The notes beneath the pieces are model-generated. The model did not search any database and was not told the origin of the DNA. It saw only the letters and a list, made by a program, of their open reading frames with translations. From contig JAQPZY010001232.1 in assembly GCA_029931535.1 (NCBI GenBank), positions 1,612,001 through 1,676,000 on the forward strand: a DNA stretch of 64,000 nucleotides, written 5' to 3'. Of the stretch, positions 30,316 to 64,000 are shown piece after piece. The translations under genes were made by a program, and so were the position numbers. Source of the stretch: Margaritifera margaritifera (lineage: Eukaryota; Mollusca; Bivalvia; Unionida; Margaritiferidae). Within the stretch, counting starts at the first letter, position 1, and every line of letters begins with the position of its first letter.

Positions 30316-31620
30316 TCATCGATGTGGGCTGCACGTGAGTGTGCTGCTGAGATAGGTGAACTTGTCCACAGCCATGATGGTTTGGCCATTTACTGTGATG
30401 GAAGGCTCTACGTAAGGCTTTCCTGATGCAGGTTGGTGCATCTCCTCTGTCTTCGTGATACTGATTGTGAAACCGAAATTGTCACAAGCTGAAGAGAAAT
30501 GGTCCATACTCGCATGCATGTCAGACACAGATTTAACATTCAGGGAGCAGTCGTCAGCAAATATAAAATTAAGAACAGTCACTTCCTGTAACTTCGTCTT
30601 CGCCTGTAGTCTCCTCAGAGTGAAGAGCTTGCCGTCAGTCAGGTATCTGATGTTGATCCCAGTGGCATAGTCACGGAAGGCATGAGCAAGCATAACAGAG
30701 AACATCATAATAAAGAGGGCTGGGGCCAACACACAACCTTGCTTGACTCCATTGGTAACTGGGAATGGTTCAGATGACTCGCCGTCGTCCAAGACACGAG
30801 CCAGCATGCTATCATGGAATTGCCGAACCATCACGATGAATTTGTCTGGGCAACCAAATTGTGCCGTGATCTTCCAAATGCCCCCACGATTGACTGTGTC
30901 AAAGGCTTTTGCCAGGTCGTCGAATGTCATGTACAGGTTGGAGTTCTATTCCTGGCTTTTCTCCTGGAGTTGACGAGGTGCTAACACAACGACTACGGTC
31001 TCTCGTCCTTTCCTGAAAGCACTCTGACTCTCTGGCAGATGCCCTTGATTGAAGTGATGCACAAGGCGATTAAGCAGAATTCTGGCAAGGATTTTGCCAG
31101 CTATTGACAGCAATGAGATGCCCTGATGGTTGTCGCAGGATTTTATGTTGCCTTTTCGCTTGTGCAAATGGACGATGGGCGCATACTTGTTCTCCTGAAT
31201 TATAGTTCCTTGAGATCACATTGACTGGAAGAGTTCAGACAGTTTCTATGTCATGTGTCAGCCTCCAGCTTTGTAGACTTCTGCTGGTGTAGCATCTGCT
31301 ACAGGTGCTTTGTCATTTGACAAGAGGTCAAATTGCTTTCTCAGTTTCTGTCAGCGTTGGAGGATCAGCAAGTGATATGTTGATTTCCACTTGGGGCATT
31401 CGATCAATTGCCTCCTCGCTAATAGATGACGGTTGCTTGAGCATTCTGCCCATCTTTGATGTATCTTTTCTTTGTCAGTGAGTAGTGTGGTGCTGTCAGT
31501 GTGGTGCTGTCAGCACTCAGTATTGGAGATGTTCCTGATGACTGTGGCCCGAAGATTATCTTCAAAGCATCGTAGAAATTCTTCATGTAATTCCTGTCTG
31601 CGTATGACTGACTCTCATCT
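30316..31620 (-). pseudogene. LINE reverse transcriptase domain, frameshifted
   Basis: The reverse transcriptase core is split over two frames. The N-terminal part (30946-31167) has NHQGISLLSIAGKILARIL, the fingers motif that starts non-LTR RTs, followed by LPESQSAFRKGR. The next frame (30316-30930) has DLAKAFDTV (catalytic aspartate of motif A), NGVKQGCVLAPALF (motif B) and FIFADDCSLN, whose FADD box (codons at about 30547-30561) supplies the two motif C aspartates. Catalytic residues are therefore preserved, but the domain is broken by a frameshift between the two segments and by missing sequence upstream. In life such an enzyme primes cDNA synthesis at a nicked genomic target. Confidence 0.88.
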
Positions 31621-54494: not shown

Positions 54495-55640
54495 TCAAGG
54501 CTACTAATAACACATTGCTCATTTTATAATGCATTTGTTTCACAATTTTCTTCCGTTTGCCTTTTTTGTCCTAATTTCATATAATTTACTTCTAACACCT
54601 ACTAAACCCCACTGTGGAAAGAACATCCACTGACCTATATTTGTACTAGGGAATTAGGGGAATTAAACTGATTCGGCGTTTGCAGTTCAATCATATCAAG
54701 TTCATAATTAAGAGATGCATCACATACAAGACTGTCCATTAAATGTATATTTTTGTTCTTTAAAATATTGATTTTACATTGCACTATAGTGGATGTCCTT
54801 CTCACTTGTTAAACGAGGTCAGTTATACCATGTGACTTTTTCGCCTTTGTTTGCTTTTGCATACTGATGTGATGTTATGTCATTTTTTCTGGCATCAAAC
54901 AATGATTTCAACAATTATTCTCCAAGCCCGATGGATTCAAATTTTTCTTGTTTTCTTTTTTCTTTGTGCAGGATTTTCATTTAAATTTGTAAATAGTCTG
55001 AATATAATAAGACTAATTTCTTTCTTTACAAAATAGGAAGCAGTGCCCATTTAAATTTTTAAATAGTTAAACATTACTAGTAACACATTGTTCTTTTTAT
55101 AATGTATTTGTTTTACAATTTTGTTCCGCTTGCCGTCTTTGTACTAATTTCGTATAATTCACTTCTACCACCAACTAAACTCCACTGTGGAAAACGCATA
55201 TACAACACTTGTACTAGTCAGTGGTCATAGCAAATTAGAGGAATTAAACTGATTTGACGTTCGGAGTTCAATCATTTCAAGGTCATAATTTAGAGATGCA
55301 TCAACTCCAAGACTGTCCATTACACGTATATGTGTGTGTGTGTGCAAAAGCAAAAAAGAGGCGAAAAGTCACATGGTATAACTGATCTCATTGATCAGTT
55401 ATACCATGTGGCGTTTCGCCTCTTTATACTTTTGCATATTGATGTATTGTGGGGGAGGGGGTTGGTTTTTTTAATTTTTTATTTGTTTTTTTGCATGAAA
55501 CAATGATAGTAAAAATCGATTAAAATGTTTTCCTGTTTTTCTTTGTTTTTGTTTTTTTGTTTTTTTTTTGTACAGGACTTTCATTTAAATGAGTAAATTG
55601 TCGGTATATAATCAGACTAATTTCTTTCTTTACAGAAAAG
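54495..55640 (+). repeat. Tandem duplication of about 570 bp inside block C
   Basis: Segments from about 54495 and from about 55080 share AACACATTG, TTTGTTTCACAATTTT-like, CTAAACTCCACTGTGG-like, GAATTAAACTGATT and AGAGATGCATCA landmarks in the same order. The first copy keeps only one arm of the long hairpin; the second keeps both arms. Unit 1 has a single copy. Confidence 0.8.
55344..55435 (+). repeat. Long near-perfect hairpin, unit 5 copy
   Basis: Left arm 55344-55387 and right arm 55393-55435 differ from one another at a handful of bases. The central part, including ACATGGTATAACTGATC and its complement, is perfectly paired. It is preceded by (GT)n, as in unit 1 (7693-7783). Confidence 0.85.
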
Positions 55641-55865
55641 GACATGGTACCTTTTTAAATCTTTTTTCCTTGCAATGACTTCATATCTTATATTTTTCAC
55701 ACCTTTTGTTAATGTCAACAAGTAAAAGGCACACTATAGTGTTATTTAGCCCATCATAATCTAAGCAATATTTCGAGTCTAAAATAATACAGCAAATATT
55801 TTCAACATAATTTAGACTGCACTTCATAAACTGTCAATTCCAAATCTAAGAAAGACTATTTCCTC

Positions 55866-55896: not shown

Positions 55897-55955
<59 letters not shown>
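55866..55955. repeat. (CT)n and (TA)n tracts at the gypsy insertion site
   Basis: A short CT tract, then GTTATACAAATT, then a TA tract ending in ATAC. The final ATAC is the left half of the target-site duplication. Confidence 0.9.
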
Positions 55956-55956
<1 letters not shown>

Positions 55957-56198
55957 TGTTATGTATGATGTTATATAATATTATAAATATTTTAGGAAAT
56001 TATAAATGTTTCTTCACTTTAATATTTGCTTAAATCTTTATGTTTATCAGGAAAAACATGTTTAACTAGTGTCCTTGAATTAGGTTGTTTTGATCAATAT
56101 AATGTTTTCTCAATTTGAAGGTCAAGGTTGATTTTGTTTACAAGTAGAATTCCATCAAGATGACTCATGTTCTAGAACATTCTGTCATGTGACCAATC

Positions 56199-56208
56199 TT
56201 TATATATA
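56199..56208 (+). promoter_or_regulatory. Probable TATA box of the LTR promoter
   Basis: TTTATATATA in the middle of the LTR, identical in the 3' copy (62167-62176). The position about 245 bases into the LTR fits a U3 promoter. Transcription start is not determinable by eye. Confidence 0.55.
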
Positions 56209-56626
56209 CCATGTTTGGTGGACATTTTTTCAGTTTTGACATTACCATCAGTCTTGTAAAGAGCTAATACAGTTGTGAAAATTCATTCCAAATTCTAAGA
56301 GAGGAATTATTTTAAATATTCGTTGGATTATAACAGTGCTCATAAACTTTTAGATTTTGGATTTTTAATTGATGATTTTGGAATTTATGTGAACTTATTC
56401 AGAGATTTTGGAATACTTCATTTTGACATCAGCACATCAAGATTACTAGTACATCAGGACTTTGGAGACCATTAGCACATCATAACATTCAAGGACACAG
56501 CCGTGAATTCGGAACATTCTATATTTAGGACTTGTGATTAGAACAATCATTCTTATTGGATTATTAGGATTTCAAAACACATTACTGTAAGTGACTTTTT
56601 GATTTTTTTCATTTTAATTATCTAGT

Positions 56627-56632
56627 AATAAA
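56627..56632 (+). promoter_or_regulatory. AATAAA polyadenylation signal in the LTR
   Basis: The signal lies about 80 bases before the LTR end. In the 3' LTR the same hexamer (62593-62598) would terminate the element transcript. Confidence 0.6.
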
Positions 56633-56715
56633 TTGCTTGTTGATTTTTACTTGATTTGTTGGTTTCACTTTTTTTCTGTTACATTTTTCTTAGACCATAG
56701 AGTCGTAACAGAAAT

Positions 56716-56733
56716 TGGGGGCTCGTCCGGGAT
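56716..56733 (+). promoter_or_regulatory. Primer binding site, proline-tRNA type
   Basis: TGGGGGCTCGTCCGGGAT is complementary to the 3' 18 bases (with CCA) of animal tRNA-Pro. It is the primer-site sequence best known from gammaretroviruses. It begins after a five-base spacer (GAAAT) following the LTR. Confidence 0.92.
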
Positions 56734-56877
56734 TGAATTTCTTTAAAGCATATTGGAGATATTAAAGTTATTTTTTAAATTCATATTGATTTTGTCTCGG
56801 AGAATTTTATTTTTTTTGTCATTGGCAAAGATTTTATATAGAGAAATTTTTTTGTGTGAAACCAACAAGCATTTACA

Positions 56878-57345
56878 ATGGCATCTAATGTTCAGAATTT
56901 CATTTCAAAACCTACCCAGGAGGGGTTAGAGTGCATGAGAAAGGATGAGTTGCTCGAGCTTGCCAGAAAATACAGTCTATCTGAGACAAAAGTATCATTG
57001 ACAAAACAGGAGATAAAGATTATTTTGATTCAGTATTTAGTAGGAAAGGGAATTTTTGAAAATAGTGCTTTAAGTTTGAAGAGAAAGCCTGTATCTGGTT
57101 CTGACAGGAAATTAAGGGAATTAGAGTTAAAGAACCAGATGGATTTAGAATTGGCAAAGCTTCAGATTCAGAGAGAGAGAGAGAAAGAAGAGAGGCAGAT
57201 ACAGATGGAGAGAGAGAAGGAAGAGAGGCAGATACAAATGCAAAAAGAAGAGAGGCAGATACAGATGGAGAGAGAGAAGGAAGAGAGGCAGATACAGATG
57301 GAGAGAGAGAAAGAAGAGAGGCAGATCCAAATGCAGAAAGAATAG
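56878..57345 (+). pseudogene. gag N-terminal segment, ended by a premature stop
   Basis: The start ATG has a good context (ACAATGG) about 144 bases after the primer site. Residues 1-65 form a compact helical region (RKDELLELARKYSL, then KQEIKIILIQYLV) that resembles SAP-like helix-extended-helix modules found at the start of some gypsy gags. From about residue 75 to the stop it is an arginine/glutamate/glutamine repeat likely to form a long coiled coil. The TAG at 57343 replaces a glutamate codon of the repeat by one base change, and the same frame continues immediately. The segment alone would lack capsid and nucleocapsid. Confidence 0.88.
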
Positions 57346-57480
57346 AGGCAGATCCAAATGCAGAAAGAAGAGAGGCAGATCCAAATGCAGAAGGAAGAGA
57401 GGCAGATACAAATGCAGATGGAGAGAGAGAAACAGGAGAGGGAGATGCAGAGAGAGAGAGAAAGAGAAGAAAGGGAAATG
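57165..57480 (+). repeat. Coding minisatellite in gag (27- and 33-bp units)
   Basis: About eight or nine units encode alternating nine-residue (QIQMQKEER) and eleven-residue (QIQMEREKEER) repeats, all multiples of three so the frame is kept. The first stop codon of the element lies inside it. Long open frames on the opposite strand over this array are an artefact of its composition. Confidence 0.9.
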
Positions 57481-59298
57481 CAATTTAAATTAAGAGAATT
57501 TGAACTGGCAAACAGAGCACACTCCACTCCTTTAAACACAAGTTCAGGTTTTGATGTTACTAGATATATTAGGTTTGTACCCCCTTTTCAGGAAAAAGAA
57601 GTAGATAAATACTTTCTTCATTTCGAGAAAATAGCTGAAAACTTGAAATGTCCCAGAGAGCGTTGGACTTTGTTATTACAAAGTGTACTCATTGGCAAAG
57701 CTCATGAAGTCTACATTTCACTGTCAGTACAACAAAGCACTGATTATGATGTGGTTAAGGAGTACATCTTGAAAGCTTATGAGTTGGTACCAGAGGCATA
57801 TCGACAAAGGTTTAGGAATTGTAGAAAAGAAACTGGACAAACTCATGTCGAATTTGCAAGGGATAAAGAACAACTATTTGATAGGTGGTGCTCAGCCAAG
57901 AAAGTTGATCAAGCTTATGATAACCTCCGACAGCTCGTATTAATTGAAGAGTTCAAGAGGTGCATCCATAGTGATGTTAAAACCTATCTTGACGAGCAGA
58001 ATGTGGAAACTTTGGAAAATGCTGCTCGTATGGCTGATGATTATTCCTTGACTCACAAAATTTCATTTGGCAATAAGTCGTCCTCTCAGCAGTTTTCTGG
58101 TAAAAAACCATTTCAATCTCATTCGAGTACTTCCAAATTTCACAACAGCACAACTGTTAGGAATCAAACATCTGATAAAACTGATCAGAAATCCTTATCT
58201 CTTCCTACGTGCACTTATTGTAAAACGAAAGGGCACGTTATTTCTGATTGCTTCAAGTTGAAAAATAAGCAACAGAGTAAAGACAGAGCTTTTCCAAATG
58301 CTCTTATTTCTACGAGGTCAAGGTCACGGTCTTGTATTGAAAGCAATACATTTGTTGGATCAAACAAACCCCAGTCTGACTCTATTTTGGAGGCTTATGA
58401 ACCATTCATGTCAGAAGGTTCTATATCACTTATTGGTGATTCTGTCAAGCCTATCCCAATTAAAATATTAAGGGACACTGGAGCTTCCCAGAGTCTTTTA
58501 TTATCAGGTACTTTGCCTTTGTCTGAGGAGTCTTCTTCAAGTGAAAGTGTTCTTGTTCAGGGAGTAGAGTGCGGCTTTGTAAATGTTCCTCTCCATTGTG
58601 TAAATTTGGCATCAGACTTAGTTTCTGAACCTGTGACTGTTGGGGCAGTGACTTCTTTACCCATAGAGGGTGTTCATTTATTACTAGGCAATGACCTAGC
58701 TGGAGATAAGGTTGTGGTTAATCCACTTGTAACTGACAAGCCTTGTTTGGATCAGAAAGTTGATCCTGTCGAAACTGAAATCCCTGATTTATACCCTGCT
58801 TGTGCAGTTACTAGAGCTATGGCAAAAAGAGCTCTTGAGAGTGATGTTGATCAGGATATTATTCCTTTAGCTGACACATGTATTGGTCAGTCTTTTGATG
58901 AGGTCACTTTTTCCTCAGGTATTGATCAATCAAATGGTATTGATCACAGTGATCCTCTTTTGGCAACTCATTCTCTTTGTTCTAATCAGGATGGCAAACG
59001 ACAATCCCTTGTCGTTGAACAGGAGCAAGATCCAGAGATATCTTGTTTGTTTCAGAGGGCTATTAGTGAAACTGAAGCCACACAAGTTCCAGTGTGTTAC
59101 TTTGTGAAAAATGGGGTCCTTATGAGGAAATGGAGACCACCTGATGTACCCGTTGGTGACGAGTGGTCAGTGAGCTATCAAATTGTTGTTCCTAAGTCAT
59201 ATCGACATGAAATTCTTAATTTAGCCCATGAAACTCCTTTGGCTGATCATTTAGGAGTCCGTAAGATTTATCATAAGATCTTGAATCATTTTTATTGA
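57346..59298 (+). pseudogene. gag capsid and nucleocapsid, protease, and start of integrase
   Basis: Counting from the first internal ATG (57358), the coiled-coil repeat ends near residue 50. The capsid region follows (VDKYFLHFEKIAENL, ERWTLLLQSVL), with a segment at about 146-230 (EAYRQRFRN, then LRQLVLIEEFKRCI) that looks like the SCAN domain/capsid C-terminal domain. A CX2CX4HX4C zinc knuckle lies at 285-298 (CTYCKTKGHVISDC). The protease active site is LRDTGASQSLLLS, with the aspartate at 373, followed by LLLGNDLAG, the second conserved protease block. The segment closes with the first half of the integrase HHCC zinc-binding domain (LAHETPLADHLG). The TGA at 59296 falls where this family normally has a tryptophan, one base change away; the frame continues beyond it. 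Confidence 0.92.
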
Positions 59299-61785
59299 CC
59301 GAAACTCAAAAGTGATGTTTCTAAATACTGCAGATCTTGTCACACTTGTCAAATGGTAGGAAAACCCAATCAGAAGATACCTAAGGCTCATCTGCAACCT
59401 ATTCCTGCATTTGATGAACCATTTAGTAGAATAATGGTAGACTGTGTTGGTCCTTTACCTAAAACCAAGTCAGGCAACCAATACTTGTTGACCATCATGT
59501 GTACATGTACAAGATTTCCAGAAGCAATTCCTCTGAGAAATATAAAAACTAAAACTATTGTGAATGCTTTGGTGAAGTTTTTTACACTTGTTGGCCTTCC
59601 CAAATCTGTCCAGTCGGATCAAGGGTCAAATTTTATGTCTGGAATTTTCCAACAAGTTATGCATGAATTAGGCATCCAACAGTTTAAATCTTCTGCCTAT
59701 CACCCTGAAAGTCAAGGTGCTTTGGAAAGATTTCATCAAACTTTGAAGAATATGATTCGATCATATTGCTTTGATACAGAAAAGGATTGGAATGAGGGTG
59801 TTCATTTGTTGTTGTTTGCTGTTAGGGAATCAGTTCAAGAGTCGTTGGGTTTTAGTTCCTTTGAACTAGTTTTTGGTCATACTGTCCGTGGACCATTGAA
59901 ATTATTGAAAGAGAAACTTCTTTCAAATGAAGATTCAAAGATGAATCTTCTTGATTATGTTTCTGATTTCAAATACAAGTTGTCAAAGGCCTGTGAAGTA
60001 GCAGGAACTAATCTTCACACTACTCAGTCAAAAATGAAATTAAGTTATGACAGAAATACACAGGAAAGGAGTTTTAAACCTGGTGACAAAGTTCTGGCTC
60101 TCTTTCCCATACCTCAGAATCCTCTTCAGGCTAAATTTTATGGTCCTTATACCGTTGAAAAGAAAGTAAATGACTTAAATTATATCATTAACACTCCTGG
60201 GAGACGGAAACAGAAACAACTTTGTCATATAAATATGTTAAAGGAATATTTTGACAGAGATAGCCCAGCTAATTATTCTGTTAATTTAGTTGTACCTGTC
60301 CCACACAGTGAAGATATCAACGATGGAGTACGATCAGACTATAGTGACTCTGGTATAACCAATCTTCGGAATTCAGAAATATTGAACAACCTAGACCAGA
60401 AACTTTCACATCTACAACAACAAGAAAGAAATGAACTAAAACAGCTATTACATGACTATGAGCACTTGTTTCCTGATGTTCCAACACGAACAAGTAAAAT
60501 TTATCATGACGTTGACATTGTAGATTCTGCGCCTGTGAAACAGCATCCTTATAGGATGAATCCTCTCAAACAGAACTATCTGAAGAAAGAAATTCAGTAT
60601 CTACTGGAGAATGATTTCATAGAACCAAGTAAAAGTAACTGGAGTTCACCATGTATTCTTGTTCCCAAGCCAGATAATACATTCCGTATGTGTACTGACT
60701 ATAGAAAAGTCAACAGTGTCACCAAAACTGATTCATTTCCAATCCCAAGAATGGACGATTGCATTGATAAAATTGGAAATGCGGAATATGTCACCAAGTT
60801 TGACCTTTTAAAAGGATTCTGGCAAATTCCACTGACGGAAAGGGCAAAAGAAATTTCAACATTTGTAACTCCAGATGGACTTTATCAATATAAAGTTATG
60901 CCGTTTGGAATGAAAAATTCGCCTGCAACGTTTCAACGTCTGATGAACATGATAACATTTGGTCTTGATAATTGTGACGCTTATATCGATGACGTCATTA
61001 TCTACAACAACACCTGGGAAGATCATTTGGAAACCATTCGAAAATTCTTCGATCGACTCAGCGATGCGAATCTGACAATTAATTTGAGTAAAAGTGAGTT
61101 TTGCCATGCTTGTGTCACATTATTAGGACATATTGTGGGACAAGGTCAAGTTAAACCTATAAAAGTTAAGGTCAAAGCTATCTCTGAATTTCAAGTTCCA
61201 ATTTGTAAAAAGCAACTGATGCGATTTCTAGGTATGGATGGATATTATCGGAAATTTTGTTCCAATTTTTCTAAAATTGCTGAACCTTTGACAAGTTTAT
61301 TGAGTAAGAAAACCAAATTTCATTGGTCTGACAAGTGTCAGGAATCTTTTGACAAGTTAAAGGCCATGCTTAAGAATGCACCAGTTCTTTCTGCACCAAA
61401 TTTCAGCCAATCATTTAAATTATCTGTTGATGCAAGTGATGTAGGGGTTGGTGGAGTATTGATTCAGGAAGACAAAAGTGGTGTGGATCACCCTGTGTGT
61501 TATTTTTCTAAAAAACTAAACAAACATCAGAAAAATTATTCCACAATTGAGAAGGAATGTTTGGCTTTGATATTGGCTTTACAGCATTTTGAAGTGTATG
61601 TTACCTCAGCTCTTTCTCCAATTATTGTGTACAGTGATCACAATCCCCTTACTTTCATCAACAAAATGAAAGATAAAAATCGGAGATTGTTGAGATGGAG
61701 TTTGATATTGCAGGAATATAACATTGACATCAAACACATCAGGGGAAAAGACAATGTGATTGCAGATGCACTCTCACGTGCCTAG
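59299..61785 (+). pseudogene. Integrase core, reverse transcriptase and RNase H
   Basis: The same frame continues after the stop with the cysteine pair of the zinc domain (YCRSCHTCQ). Counting from the first ATG (59353), the integrase catalytic triad is D30, D89 and E125 (D-D-35-E spacing, motifs MVDCVGP, SDQGSNF and HPESQGALERF). A GPY/F-type module (FYGPYTVEKKV) lies near 258-270; no chromodomain is seen. Reverse transcriptase spans about 395-620 with KFDLLKGFWQI (catalytic D484), MPFGMKNSPATFQR and YIDDV (544-548, genomic 60982-60996). RNase H follows from about 690 (LSVDASDVGVGGVL with D693, then STIEKECLAL and YSDHNPL) and ends ADALSRA. All catalytic residues checked are present. The segment lacks its own start, since it depended on the upstream polyprotein. 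Confidence 0.95.
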
Positions 61786-61914
61786 AAATCTAATATTGCT
61801 TGATGTAATTAAGTCCAGTATCATAAAACATGTTCTTATGTAATTTTGGTTATTATAGTATTAGATGTATATTCAAAAGAAAGCTTTATTACATAAATCT
61901 TTCTTTTTCTTTAT

Positions 61915-61923
61915 GAGGGGAGG
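61915..61923 (+). promoter_or_regulatory. Polypurine tract
   Basis: GAGGGGAGG lies directly before the TG of the 3' LTR. It would prime plus-strand DNA synthesis. Confidence 0.9.
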
Positions 61924-62676
61924 TGTTATGTATGATGTTTATATAATATTAAAAATATTTTAGGAAATTATAAATGTTTCTTCACTTTAATATTTGCTTA
62001 AATCTTTATGTTTATCAGGAAAAACATGTTTAACTAGTGTCCTTGAATTAGGTTGTTTTGATCAATATAATGTTTTCTCAATTTGAAGGTCAAGGTTGAT
62101 TTTGTTTACAAGTAGAATTCCATCAAGATGACTCATGTTCTAGAACATTCTGTCATGTGACCAATCTTTATATATACCATGTTTGGTGACATTAATTCAG
62201 TTTTGACATTACCATCAGTCTTGTAAAGAGCTAATACAGTTGTGAAAATTCATTCCAAATTCTAAGAGAGGAATTATTTTAAATATTCATTGGATTATAA
62301 CAGTGCTCATAAACTTTTAGATTTTGGATTTTTAATTGATGATTTTGGAATTTATGTGAACTTATTCAGAGATTTTGGAATACTTCATTTTGACATCAGC
62401 ACATCAAGATTACTAGTACATCAGGACTTTGGAGACCATTAGCACATCATAACATTCAAGGACACAGCCGTGAATTCGGAACATTCTATATTTAGGACTT
62501 GTGATTAGAACAATCATTCTTATTGGATTATTAGGATTTCAAAACACATTACTGTAAGTGACTTTTTGATTTTTTCATTTTAATTATCTAGTAATAAATT
62601 GCTTGTTGATTTTTGCTTGATTTGTTGGTTTCACTTTCTTTCTGTTACATTTTTCTTAGACCATAGAGTCGTAACA
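61924..62676 (+). repeat. 3' LTR
   Basis: It starts TGTTATGTATGATG and ends GTCGTAACA, with about nine small differences from the 5' LTR. It is followed by ATAC, the right target-site duplication, and then block C sequence. Confidence 0.96.
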
Positions 62677-64000
62677 ATACACACGTAGATCCATCATGTC
62701 TCCAACAAAACTCGTTCTCAGTAATTCAATCTGAACTTGCACACAATTGACCTATGATTAAATTTCGACTAGAAGAAGAAAAGAGATCGCGTTTTTCTGA
62801 TATCCATTTTCCTAAATTATGTGTTGACAAGACCCATGAAAGACCTTTCCGTTGGAACGTGCTGACATATAGGGATATTATTGTCATGTTTTAAAGAAAT
62901 TGTGTAGGCGTACAAATCAACGAATTTCATGAAAGATCATGATCATCTTGAAATTTGAAAAGAGTTTTTCAATACAATTTCTTCACTTGAAACCAACGCA
63001 TTTGCATTGTCTGTGAAACGTAATACAATATTCGTGAAACTCAGTCGGAACATAATTTGTAACCTGTTTAATTTACATGTTAATTTATCAACTTAGGATA
63101 AAATACGAAGGTTAGAAGATAAATAATTGTTTTAGTTCCATTGACGCCGACATCTTAACGTGACCTATCACAAAAGAAAATCTGAATTCGAATTTCATCA
63201 ATCAAGATAATATTGTGAGGTCACTGGTAACATCGCCATCTCCCTACTCTGCACCGTTCGGATCTCAAGCCAATACTCGCTATTTCTGTCTAAGGTGATA
63301 TTTGACACTCAAATGAGTTCCACCTTGCAGAACATTTTTAGTTGCACTTCTTTAGAAAAAATGTCACGTCTTGCCTCTCTATTCATTTTCAACTTGCTTA
63401 GCGATGCCTTGAATGGATATAAATCTGTCAAGTTTGACCTTTATTCAGTCTCAAATCTCATAAATATGCTTCAATAAGGATTAATTATTACGTATATCAG
63501 TTTTAAAATTTCATGGCCTCTTCTGTGAAAACCCACTTCATAGTAGATAAATATATTAATGTTTCCCCTATAAAAATCAGAATTGTCAGAAATCCGTTTT
63601 ATTACTCGCAAACTCTTTCATATAGAATGTGCAACAACGATCGGAGTATGTGCTGAAATTTTGCGCAATTGGGTCAATTCATGGCTCAGGTCTATATAAT
63701 TTGAATTCGTATTTTACTTGTCGCAATTGGCCGAAGTTGAAATTATTTCAGTTTGTACCTAGTACATGATAATAATTGTGTTAGAGTCAGACTAACCATC
63801 CCCTAGAACTTTCTCGAATCAAATTATATATGAGATTATGCGGTGATTAAATGTAGCTAGTGAATGTCACAGCATATTTTGTCTTGAAGAAATTGATATT
63901 GTGTTATGTACCAAATAAAAATATGGTTGCTTCAATTATGTGTGGCTGCTTTGTGAAGAATAATGTCAGGATCAAAGAAGCCTGTCATGAAAGAAAAATC
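62677..64000 (+). repeat. Unit 5, block C after the gypsy insertion
   Basis: It resumes with a TCCATCATGTCTCCAACAAA-type segment, as at 8398 and 35990, and follows unit 1 to the window end, including TTGAATGGATATAAATCTG near 63412. The last 100 bases match the beginning of the LINE-bearing segment of unit 1 (GTGGCTGCTTTGTGAAGAAT). The copy runs out of the window. Confidence 0.88.

What the first reader, a model, noticed from the sequence alone, without database searches (positions are those of the whole stretch)
55957..62676. Gypsy-type element with integrase encoded before reverse transcriptase
Seen directly: the integrase triad (59440-59730) lies upstream of the YIDDV box (60982) and RNase H in one reading frame, with gag and protease before them. 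Established: most Ty3/gypsy elements order protease-RT-RNase H-integrase, and the Gmr1-like group, described mainly from deuterostomes, has integrase first. Inference: if the host is a mollusc or other protostome, this copy extends that layout to a lineage where it is less well documented.
Basis: partly seen in the sequence, partly recalled or inferred. Interest (0 to 1): 0.75.

Follow-up and report, generated by a model that had tools for sequence, protein, structure and literature searches.

The report
Integrase-first gypsy retrotransposon in bivalve
This is a recent, now broken copy of a common jumping element of the Gmr1-like kind, whose integrase gene sits before its reverse transcriptase gene; that layout is known from fish, frogs, crustaceans and a worm, and here it sits in what is probably a freshwater pearl mussel.

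Summary
Window 55957-62676 is an LTR retrotransposon with two ~754-bp LTRs (6 substitutions in 752 aligned sites), target duplication ATAC, a PBS, a PPT and, in one frame, gag, protease, integrase (DD35E at 59440/59617/59725), reverse transcriptase (YIDDV at 60982) and RNase H. Two in-frame stops break gag-pol. The integrase-first order is not an artefact: it recurs in 7 of 7 other internal units read in the host assembly and in 136 of 136 database proteins (of 360 listed) that match both domains. Integrase and RT identities covary (rho 0.90, 65 rows). The enzymes are Ty3/gypsy-type, and gag carries a SCAN-like capsid domain, a recorded Gmr1 mark. So it is a Gmr1-like element (0.93), although no named Gmr1 reference was at hand for a tree. 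The host is probably the freshwater pearl mussel Margaritifera margaritifera, on assembly statistics only. A mollusc survey of 2018 listed none, so this is a modest range extension. In passing: one host insertion is a head-to-tail array of four near-identical units.

The parts
55953..55956 (.). 5' target-site duplication ATAC
55957..56710 (+). 5' LTR (754 bp, TGTTATG...CGTAACA)
   Evidence: the 40 scored matches in the host genome are 97-100% identical
56716..56733 (+). primer-binding site TGGGGGCTCGTCCGGGAT, 5 bases after the LTR; fits a tRNA-Pro 3' end (recalled from murine leukaemia virus)
   Evidence: 1022 genome sites, 0 in the reversed-pattern control
56878..57345 (+). gag N-terminal part with a 27/33-base repeat coding a charged, probably helical stretch; ends at an in-frame stop
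57790..58059 (+). SCAN-like capsid C-terminal domain (PF02023)
   Evidence: 2.6e-13; model resembles capsid C-terminal domains, weakly
58210..58251 (+). zinc knuckle CX2CX4HX4C
58474..58695 (+). aspartic protease by motif: DTGA (58474) to LLLGND (58678-58695); no Pfam protease match
59188..59361 (+). integrase H2C2 zinc-binding domain, interrupted by an in-frame stop (59296-59298)
59416..59706 (+). integrase core as matched by Pfam rve; triad D59440, D59617, E59725 (E lies just past the match)
60142..60243 (+). integrase C-terminal domain (Integrase_p58_C)
60661..61137 (+). reverse transcriptase, RVT_1; YIDDV at 60982
61324..61719 (+). RNase H (RT_RNaseH_2 / RT_RNaseH)
61783..61785 (+). terminal stop codon of pol
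61915..61923 (+). polypurine tract GAGGGGAGG directly before the 3' LTR
61924..62676 (+). 3' LTR (753 bp); 3 transitions, 3 transversions, 3 gap columns against the 5' LTR
62677..62680 (.). 3' target-site duplication ATAC

Best explanation
A recent but now broken insertion of a Gmr1-like Ty3/gypsy LTR retrotransposon with order gag-protease-integrase-RT-RNase H. Inferred mechanism: an LTR-driven RNA is copied by RT primed by a tRNA (probably tRNA-Pro) inside capsids built from a SCAN-like gag, and integrase joins the cDNA to the host with a 4-bp (sometimes 5-bp) duplication. The enzymes appear to come from one gag-pol frame, so placing integrase ahead of RT changes the order of cleavage products, not the cycle. 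Shown: anatomy, order, its recurrence in relatives, LTR near-identity, target duplications. Inferred: life cycle, primer identity, single polyprotein. The host is probably the bivalve Margaritifera margaritifera.
For: Pfam order. Ty3 entry 7q5b is the top solved match of the integrase piece and second, just behind an RT/RNase H entry (4ol8) whose aligned residues are almost those of Ty3, of the RT piece; in Ty3 RT (582-1009) comes before integrase (1129-1448), the reverse of here. 7 of 7 other host internal units, from four insertions; 136 of 136 proteins matching both domains, 0 reversed, among 360 listed hits. Control: conventional gypsy contig L020 has RT then integrase, while L018 and L019 are integrase-first. 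Integrase/RT identity correlation 0.90 over 65 rows. SCAN in 120 of 120 listed gag relatives; SCAN found in over 50% of Gmr elements only, among frog LTR elements (PMC4131045, passages). An integrase named from a sea cucumber falls inside the group. Target duplications in 5 of 5 insertions read.
Against: No named Gmr1 sequence (Gadus, Danio) could be put in a tree, so monophyly with Gmr1 proper is not shown; both trees are quick ones with one long outgroup and few strongly supported forks. The sea-cucumber record carries no RT, so its domain order is unseen. The listed relatives are the best 120 per search and mostly unnamed. A survey of other gypsy elements in this host, to compare orders, did not complete. 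Host identity is circumstantial; no COX1 match was found.
Confidence: 0.93

Rival explanations
1. An independent switch to integrase-first order inside another gypsy clade (for example one of the mollusc MolGy clades), convergent with Gmr1.
For: The 2018 mollusc survey found no Gmr1 clade but 16 new clades whose pol order the passages seen do not state. Named Gmr1 references were not available here.
Against: The SCAN-like gag is an independent Gmr1 mark, and an integrase named from a deuterostome (sea cucumber) falls within the group.
Confidence: 0.05
2. A nested insertion, recombinant or assembly error that put an integrase fragment before an RT of another element.
For: The frame is broken by two stops.
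Against: Same order and nearly constant domain spacing in the other host copies read and the same order in 136 of 136 listed proteins matching both domains; integrase and RT identities covary.
Confidence: 0.01
3. A Ty1/copia element, in which integrase-first is the rule.
For: Domain order only.
Against: Pfam gives RVT_1, RT_RNaseH, Integrase_H2C2 and Integrase_p58_C and no copia RT model at E 0.01; Ty3 is among the two best solved relatives of the RT piece and the best of the integrase piece.
Confidence: 0.01

Closest known systems
Gmr1-like Ty3/gypsy elements (Goodwin and Poulter 2002, as cited in PMC6238403; original not read)
   Same: Ty3-type enzymes with integrase upstream of RT; SCAN-like capsid domain as recorded for frog Gmr elements
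   Different: Probable bivalve host; charged repeat in the gag N-terminus (not compared with Gmr1 gag)
Crustacean Gmr1-like elements GyRex4, Gychoro2, GyMaja1, GyLiva4 (PMC3587641, passages)
   Same: Protostome hosts; RT clade related to Gmr1 according to the authors
   Different: GyRex4 and GyRex5 are described there as non-overlapping RT/RNase H and integrase pieces; this copy shows the whole layout. Sequences not compared here
Annelid LGF3 family of Lamellibrachia luymesi (PMC8220671, passages)
   Same: Lophotrochozoan Gmr1 family by the authors' RT, RNase H and integrase trees
   Different: Host phylum; sequences not compared here
Ty3 of yeast
   Same: Closest or nearly closest solved RT-RNase H and integrase
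   Different: RT before integrase

Membership tests
Gmr1-like Ty3/gypsy | Integrase encoded upstream of RT in pol | tested here: met
Gmr1-like Ty3/gypsy | RT, RNase H and integrase of Ty3/gypsy type | tested here: met
Gmr1-like Ty3/gypsy | SCAN-like capsid C-terminal domain in gag (PMC4592553, PMC3424704, PMC4131045; passages) | tested here: met
   (2.6e-13); 120 of 120 listed gag relatives of 1469
Gmr1-like Ty3/gypsy | RT and integrase cluster with named Gmr1 references | tested here: inconclusive
   No named Gmr1 reference obtained; only an integrase named from Apostichopus (deuterostome) falls in the group
LTR retrotransposon | Paired LTRs, PBS, PPT, short target duplication | tested here: met
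Ty1/copia | Copia-type RT | tested here: not met
   RVT_1 and RT_RNaseH matched, no copia RT model at E 0.01

The most novel reading that the evidence does not exclude
In this genome, elements with this PBS expand after insertion as head-to-tail arrays sharing LTRs: one verified array has four near-identical internal units inside a single target duplication, and 28 of the first 100 listed PBS sites (of 1,022) lie in 9 same-strand runs spaced 4.6-5.9 kb. Array growth or concatemer integration would then be a regular way of multiplying, rather than an assembly quirk.
Probability: 0.2. Interest if true: 0.5.

Novelty: new member of a known kind. Interest (0 to 1): 0.27.

Why it matters
It adds a probable bivalve to the hosts of integrase-first gypsy elements and shows the layout recurring in every listed relative in which both domains could be seen. 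The SCAN-like capsid domain in what is probably a bivalve copy fits the published view that vertebrate SCAN domains came from Gmr1-like gag, and suggests that such a gag is not confined to vertebrates. It is otherwise ordinary.

Tried and rejected
Host by COX1: no match in the assembly (7 candidates scored). Host by mollusc haemocyanin (PF14830): no candidate, but the control genomes gave nothing either, so it says little; bivalves mostly lack this protein (recalled). I first thought of a cephalopod from the repeats (recalled impression only) and dropped that for lack of evidence. The host inference rests on 2,453,371,941 bases in 1,696 contigs against the published 2.45 Gb in 1,700 contigs, GC 35.3% (PMC10189783, passages); the contig numbers do not agree exactly; window GC is 34.7%. 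Unio pictorum (2.43 Gb, 670 contigs) and Unio delphinus (2.50 Gb, 1,254 sequences) fit less well. No genome outside the freshwater mussels in those tables was compared.

Scans of viral contigs gave no relative; the first genome-contig scan gave none, the second gave L018-L020. ARAGORN found no tRNA in the four PBS loci, so the tRNA-Pro primer stays unproven. The gag piece had no sequence match among solved structures. A single-sequence fold of gag was poor (mean pLDDT 41); the aligned one was modest (54.9), and its Foldseek hits, led by retroviral, Arc, PEG10 and MOAP1 capsid C-terminal domains, have E >= 0.15 (SCAN itself at rank 38), so they only agree with the Pfam result. Rfam and tRNA scans of the window: none. 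Eight other ORFs of the window, searched against Pfam for host genes, gave one match, a reverse transcriptase fragment.

Full report
What is there. The element runs from 55957 to 62676. Two LTRs of 754 and 753 bp differ by 3 transitions and 3 transversions over 752 sites (K2P 0.008), begin TG and end CA, and are flanked by ATAC on both sides; the PBS lies 5 bases after the 5' LTR and GAGGGGAGG directly before the 3' LTR. With the rate used in PMC8220671 (1.3e-8 per site and year; passage seen) the divergence would mean about 0.3 million years, a rough figure because no rate for this host was tested. It sits at the end of a TA microsatellite.

Coding parts. All lie in one forward frame: ORFs 56878-57345, 57358-59298 and 59353-61785, parted by one in-frame stop in gag and one inside the integrase zinc-binding domain. 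Pfam, run on five separate pieces, gives SCAN in gag, then Integrase_H2C2, rve and Integrase_p58_C, then RVT_1 and RNase H; it gives no protease match and nothing for the gag N-terminal piece. The triad D59440, D59617, E59725 (DD35E), YIDDV at 60982, a protease DTGA at 58474 and a zinc knuckle at 58210-58251 are present.

Is the order real? In the host assembly the LTR query had 1,746 first-look candidates, of which 40 were scored, those 40 at 97-100% identity. Nine stretches were fetched, covering seven further places. In two of the nine (L009, L011) only an LTR was in reach, and in one (L017) only the RT-RNase H end and an LTR. The other six stretches cover four separate insertions with seven internal units (four of them in one tandem array, two of those cut by stretch borders), and 7 of 7 read gag-protease-integrase-RT. 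Domain spacing is nearly constant; the length differences between copies lie almost wholly before the capsid region, where the gag repeat is, apart from 14 bases between protease and integrase in L012. Counting the window, five insertions have target duplications: ATAC, GGAT, TTAT, CGGAG and ATAG. None of the five was open throughout gag-pol (one of the array's four units was read).

Beyond the host. Protein searches listed 120 hits each of 2,233 (RT-RNase H piece), 2,275 (integrase piece) and 1,469 (gag region). Of these 360 proteins, 136 match both integrase and RT, and 136 of 136 have integrase first (one search gave 135 of 135 on the first 240); one fragment (P0253) runs from gag-protease to RT with no integrase match. 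These are the nearest relatives only. Two contigs filed under a Heimdallarchaeota MAG (L018, L019; animal contamination is my inference) are integrase-first, while a contig filed under a cyanobacterial MAG (L020) carries a conventional element with RT first, at 34% RT identity. Over 65 rows (62 of the 240 proteins with enough of both domains, the window, L018, L019) and 2,080 pairs, integrase identity and RT identity correlate at rho 0.90 (L020 left out), so the two domains have travelled together.

Which clade? For the RT piece the two best solved relatives are an RT/RNase H entry (4ol8) and Ty3 (7q5b), with almost the same aligned residues; for the integrase piece the best is Ty3, and in Ty3 the order is the opposite. 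Gag carries the SCAN-like capsid domain in 120 of 120 listed relatives. Reviews state that vertebrate SCAN domains derive from Gmr1-like gag (PMC4592553 and PMC3424704, passages), and in frogs SCAN was found in over half of Gmr elements and in no other (PMC4131045, passages). In an integrase tree of 33 rows (29 representatives of 131 proteins, the window, L018-L020) the window pairs with P0121, and a row named from the sea cucumber Apostichopus falls inside the group, next to P0118; the sea-cucumber record has no RT. In an RT tree of 40 rows (the window, 36 protein rows chosen from 119, L018-L020) the window falls in a 12-row set with a protein from a Lucinoma-symbiont MAG and one from Paramuricea clavata. 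Both trees are quick ones with a single long outgroup (L020) and 8 strongly supported inner branches of 30 and 37. No named Gmr1 sequence was available, so the clade name rests on layout, gag type and enzyme type.

Host. The assembly has 2,453,371,941 bases in 1,696 contigs. The M. margaritifera V2 assembly is reported as 2.45 Gb, 1,700 contigs, N50 3.42 Mb, GC 35.3% (PMC10189783, passages). That fits closely but not exactly, and no gene was used; COX1 was not found.

What is known. Gmr1-like elements in protostomes are in print for crustaceans (PMC3587641) and an annelid (PMC8220671); PMC8556966 counts Gmr1 among clades present in several phyla but found none in its own annelid data. The mollusc survey PMC6238403 says that only six known gypsy clades were found in molluscs, and its Table 1 has no Gmr1; it mentions Gmr1 as the known exception to pol order. 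My searches for Gmr1 with integrase and gypsy (16 papers), Gmr1 alone (2,184 papers, 40 listed, mostly unrelated), with mollusc (5), with LTR and Mag (52, 25 listed) and with octopus (1) showed no paper whose title or abstract start reports Gmr1 in a mollusc; of their hits I read passages only of those cited here. Subscription papers are largely not held.

Mechanism. The cycle is taken as the usual LTR-retrotransposon one; only anatomy, target duplications and near-identical LTRs are shown. The PBS word occurs 1,022 times in the host (0 in the reversed control); the one site read, L021, has different flanking sequence, so several families probably share this primer. Its tRNA-Pro identity is recalled, and ARAGORN found no tRNA in four of these loci.

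Verdict. Observation confirmed; family assignment well supported but not closed by a reference tree; the protostome novelty is already in print; a mollusc host is probable and would be a modest extension.

Noticed in passing
L014-L016 (G000:C708:1336466-1360689): Head-to-tail array with five LTRs and four internal units of 5116 bases, period 5868; the internal units differ at one site and the whole array has one outer target duplication, ATAG. Real expansion and assembly artefact are both open.
   Followed up: partly
G000 contigs C22, C41, C94, C105, C113, C116, C121, C126 (listing): 28 of the first 100 listed PBS sites (of 1,022) fall in 9 same-strand runs spaced 4.6-5.9 kb, so arrays may be common; the listing is in contig order, not a random sample, and these runs were not read.
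   Followed up: partly
57089-57483: 27/33-base tandem repeat in gag coding a charged, probably helical stretch; the region before the capsid domain varies by up to 97 bases among five copies.
   Followed up: partly
P0058, P0054: Close RT relatives named from an octocoral (Paramuricea clavata, 69%) and a ciliate (Halteria, 68%); contamination or cross-species transfer was not resolved.
   Followed up: no
L018, L019, L020: Animal-type retroelement contigs binned into archaeal and cyanobacterial MAGs, probably contamination.
   Followed up: no
54647-55664: Related direct repeats and inverted arms (81-94% complementary) around a CAGTTATACCATGTG motif just upstream of the element, possibly another mobile element.
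   Followed up: no
30319-30945 (-): Fragment of a reverse transcriptase, perhaps of a non-LTR element (RVT_1, 2.8e-18).
   Followed up: no
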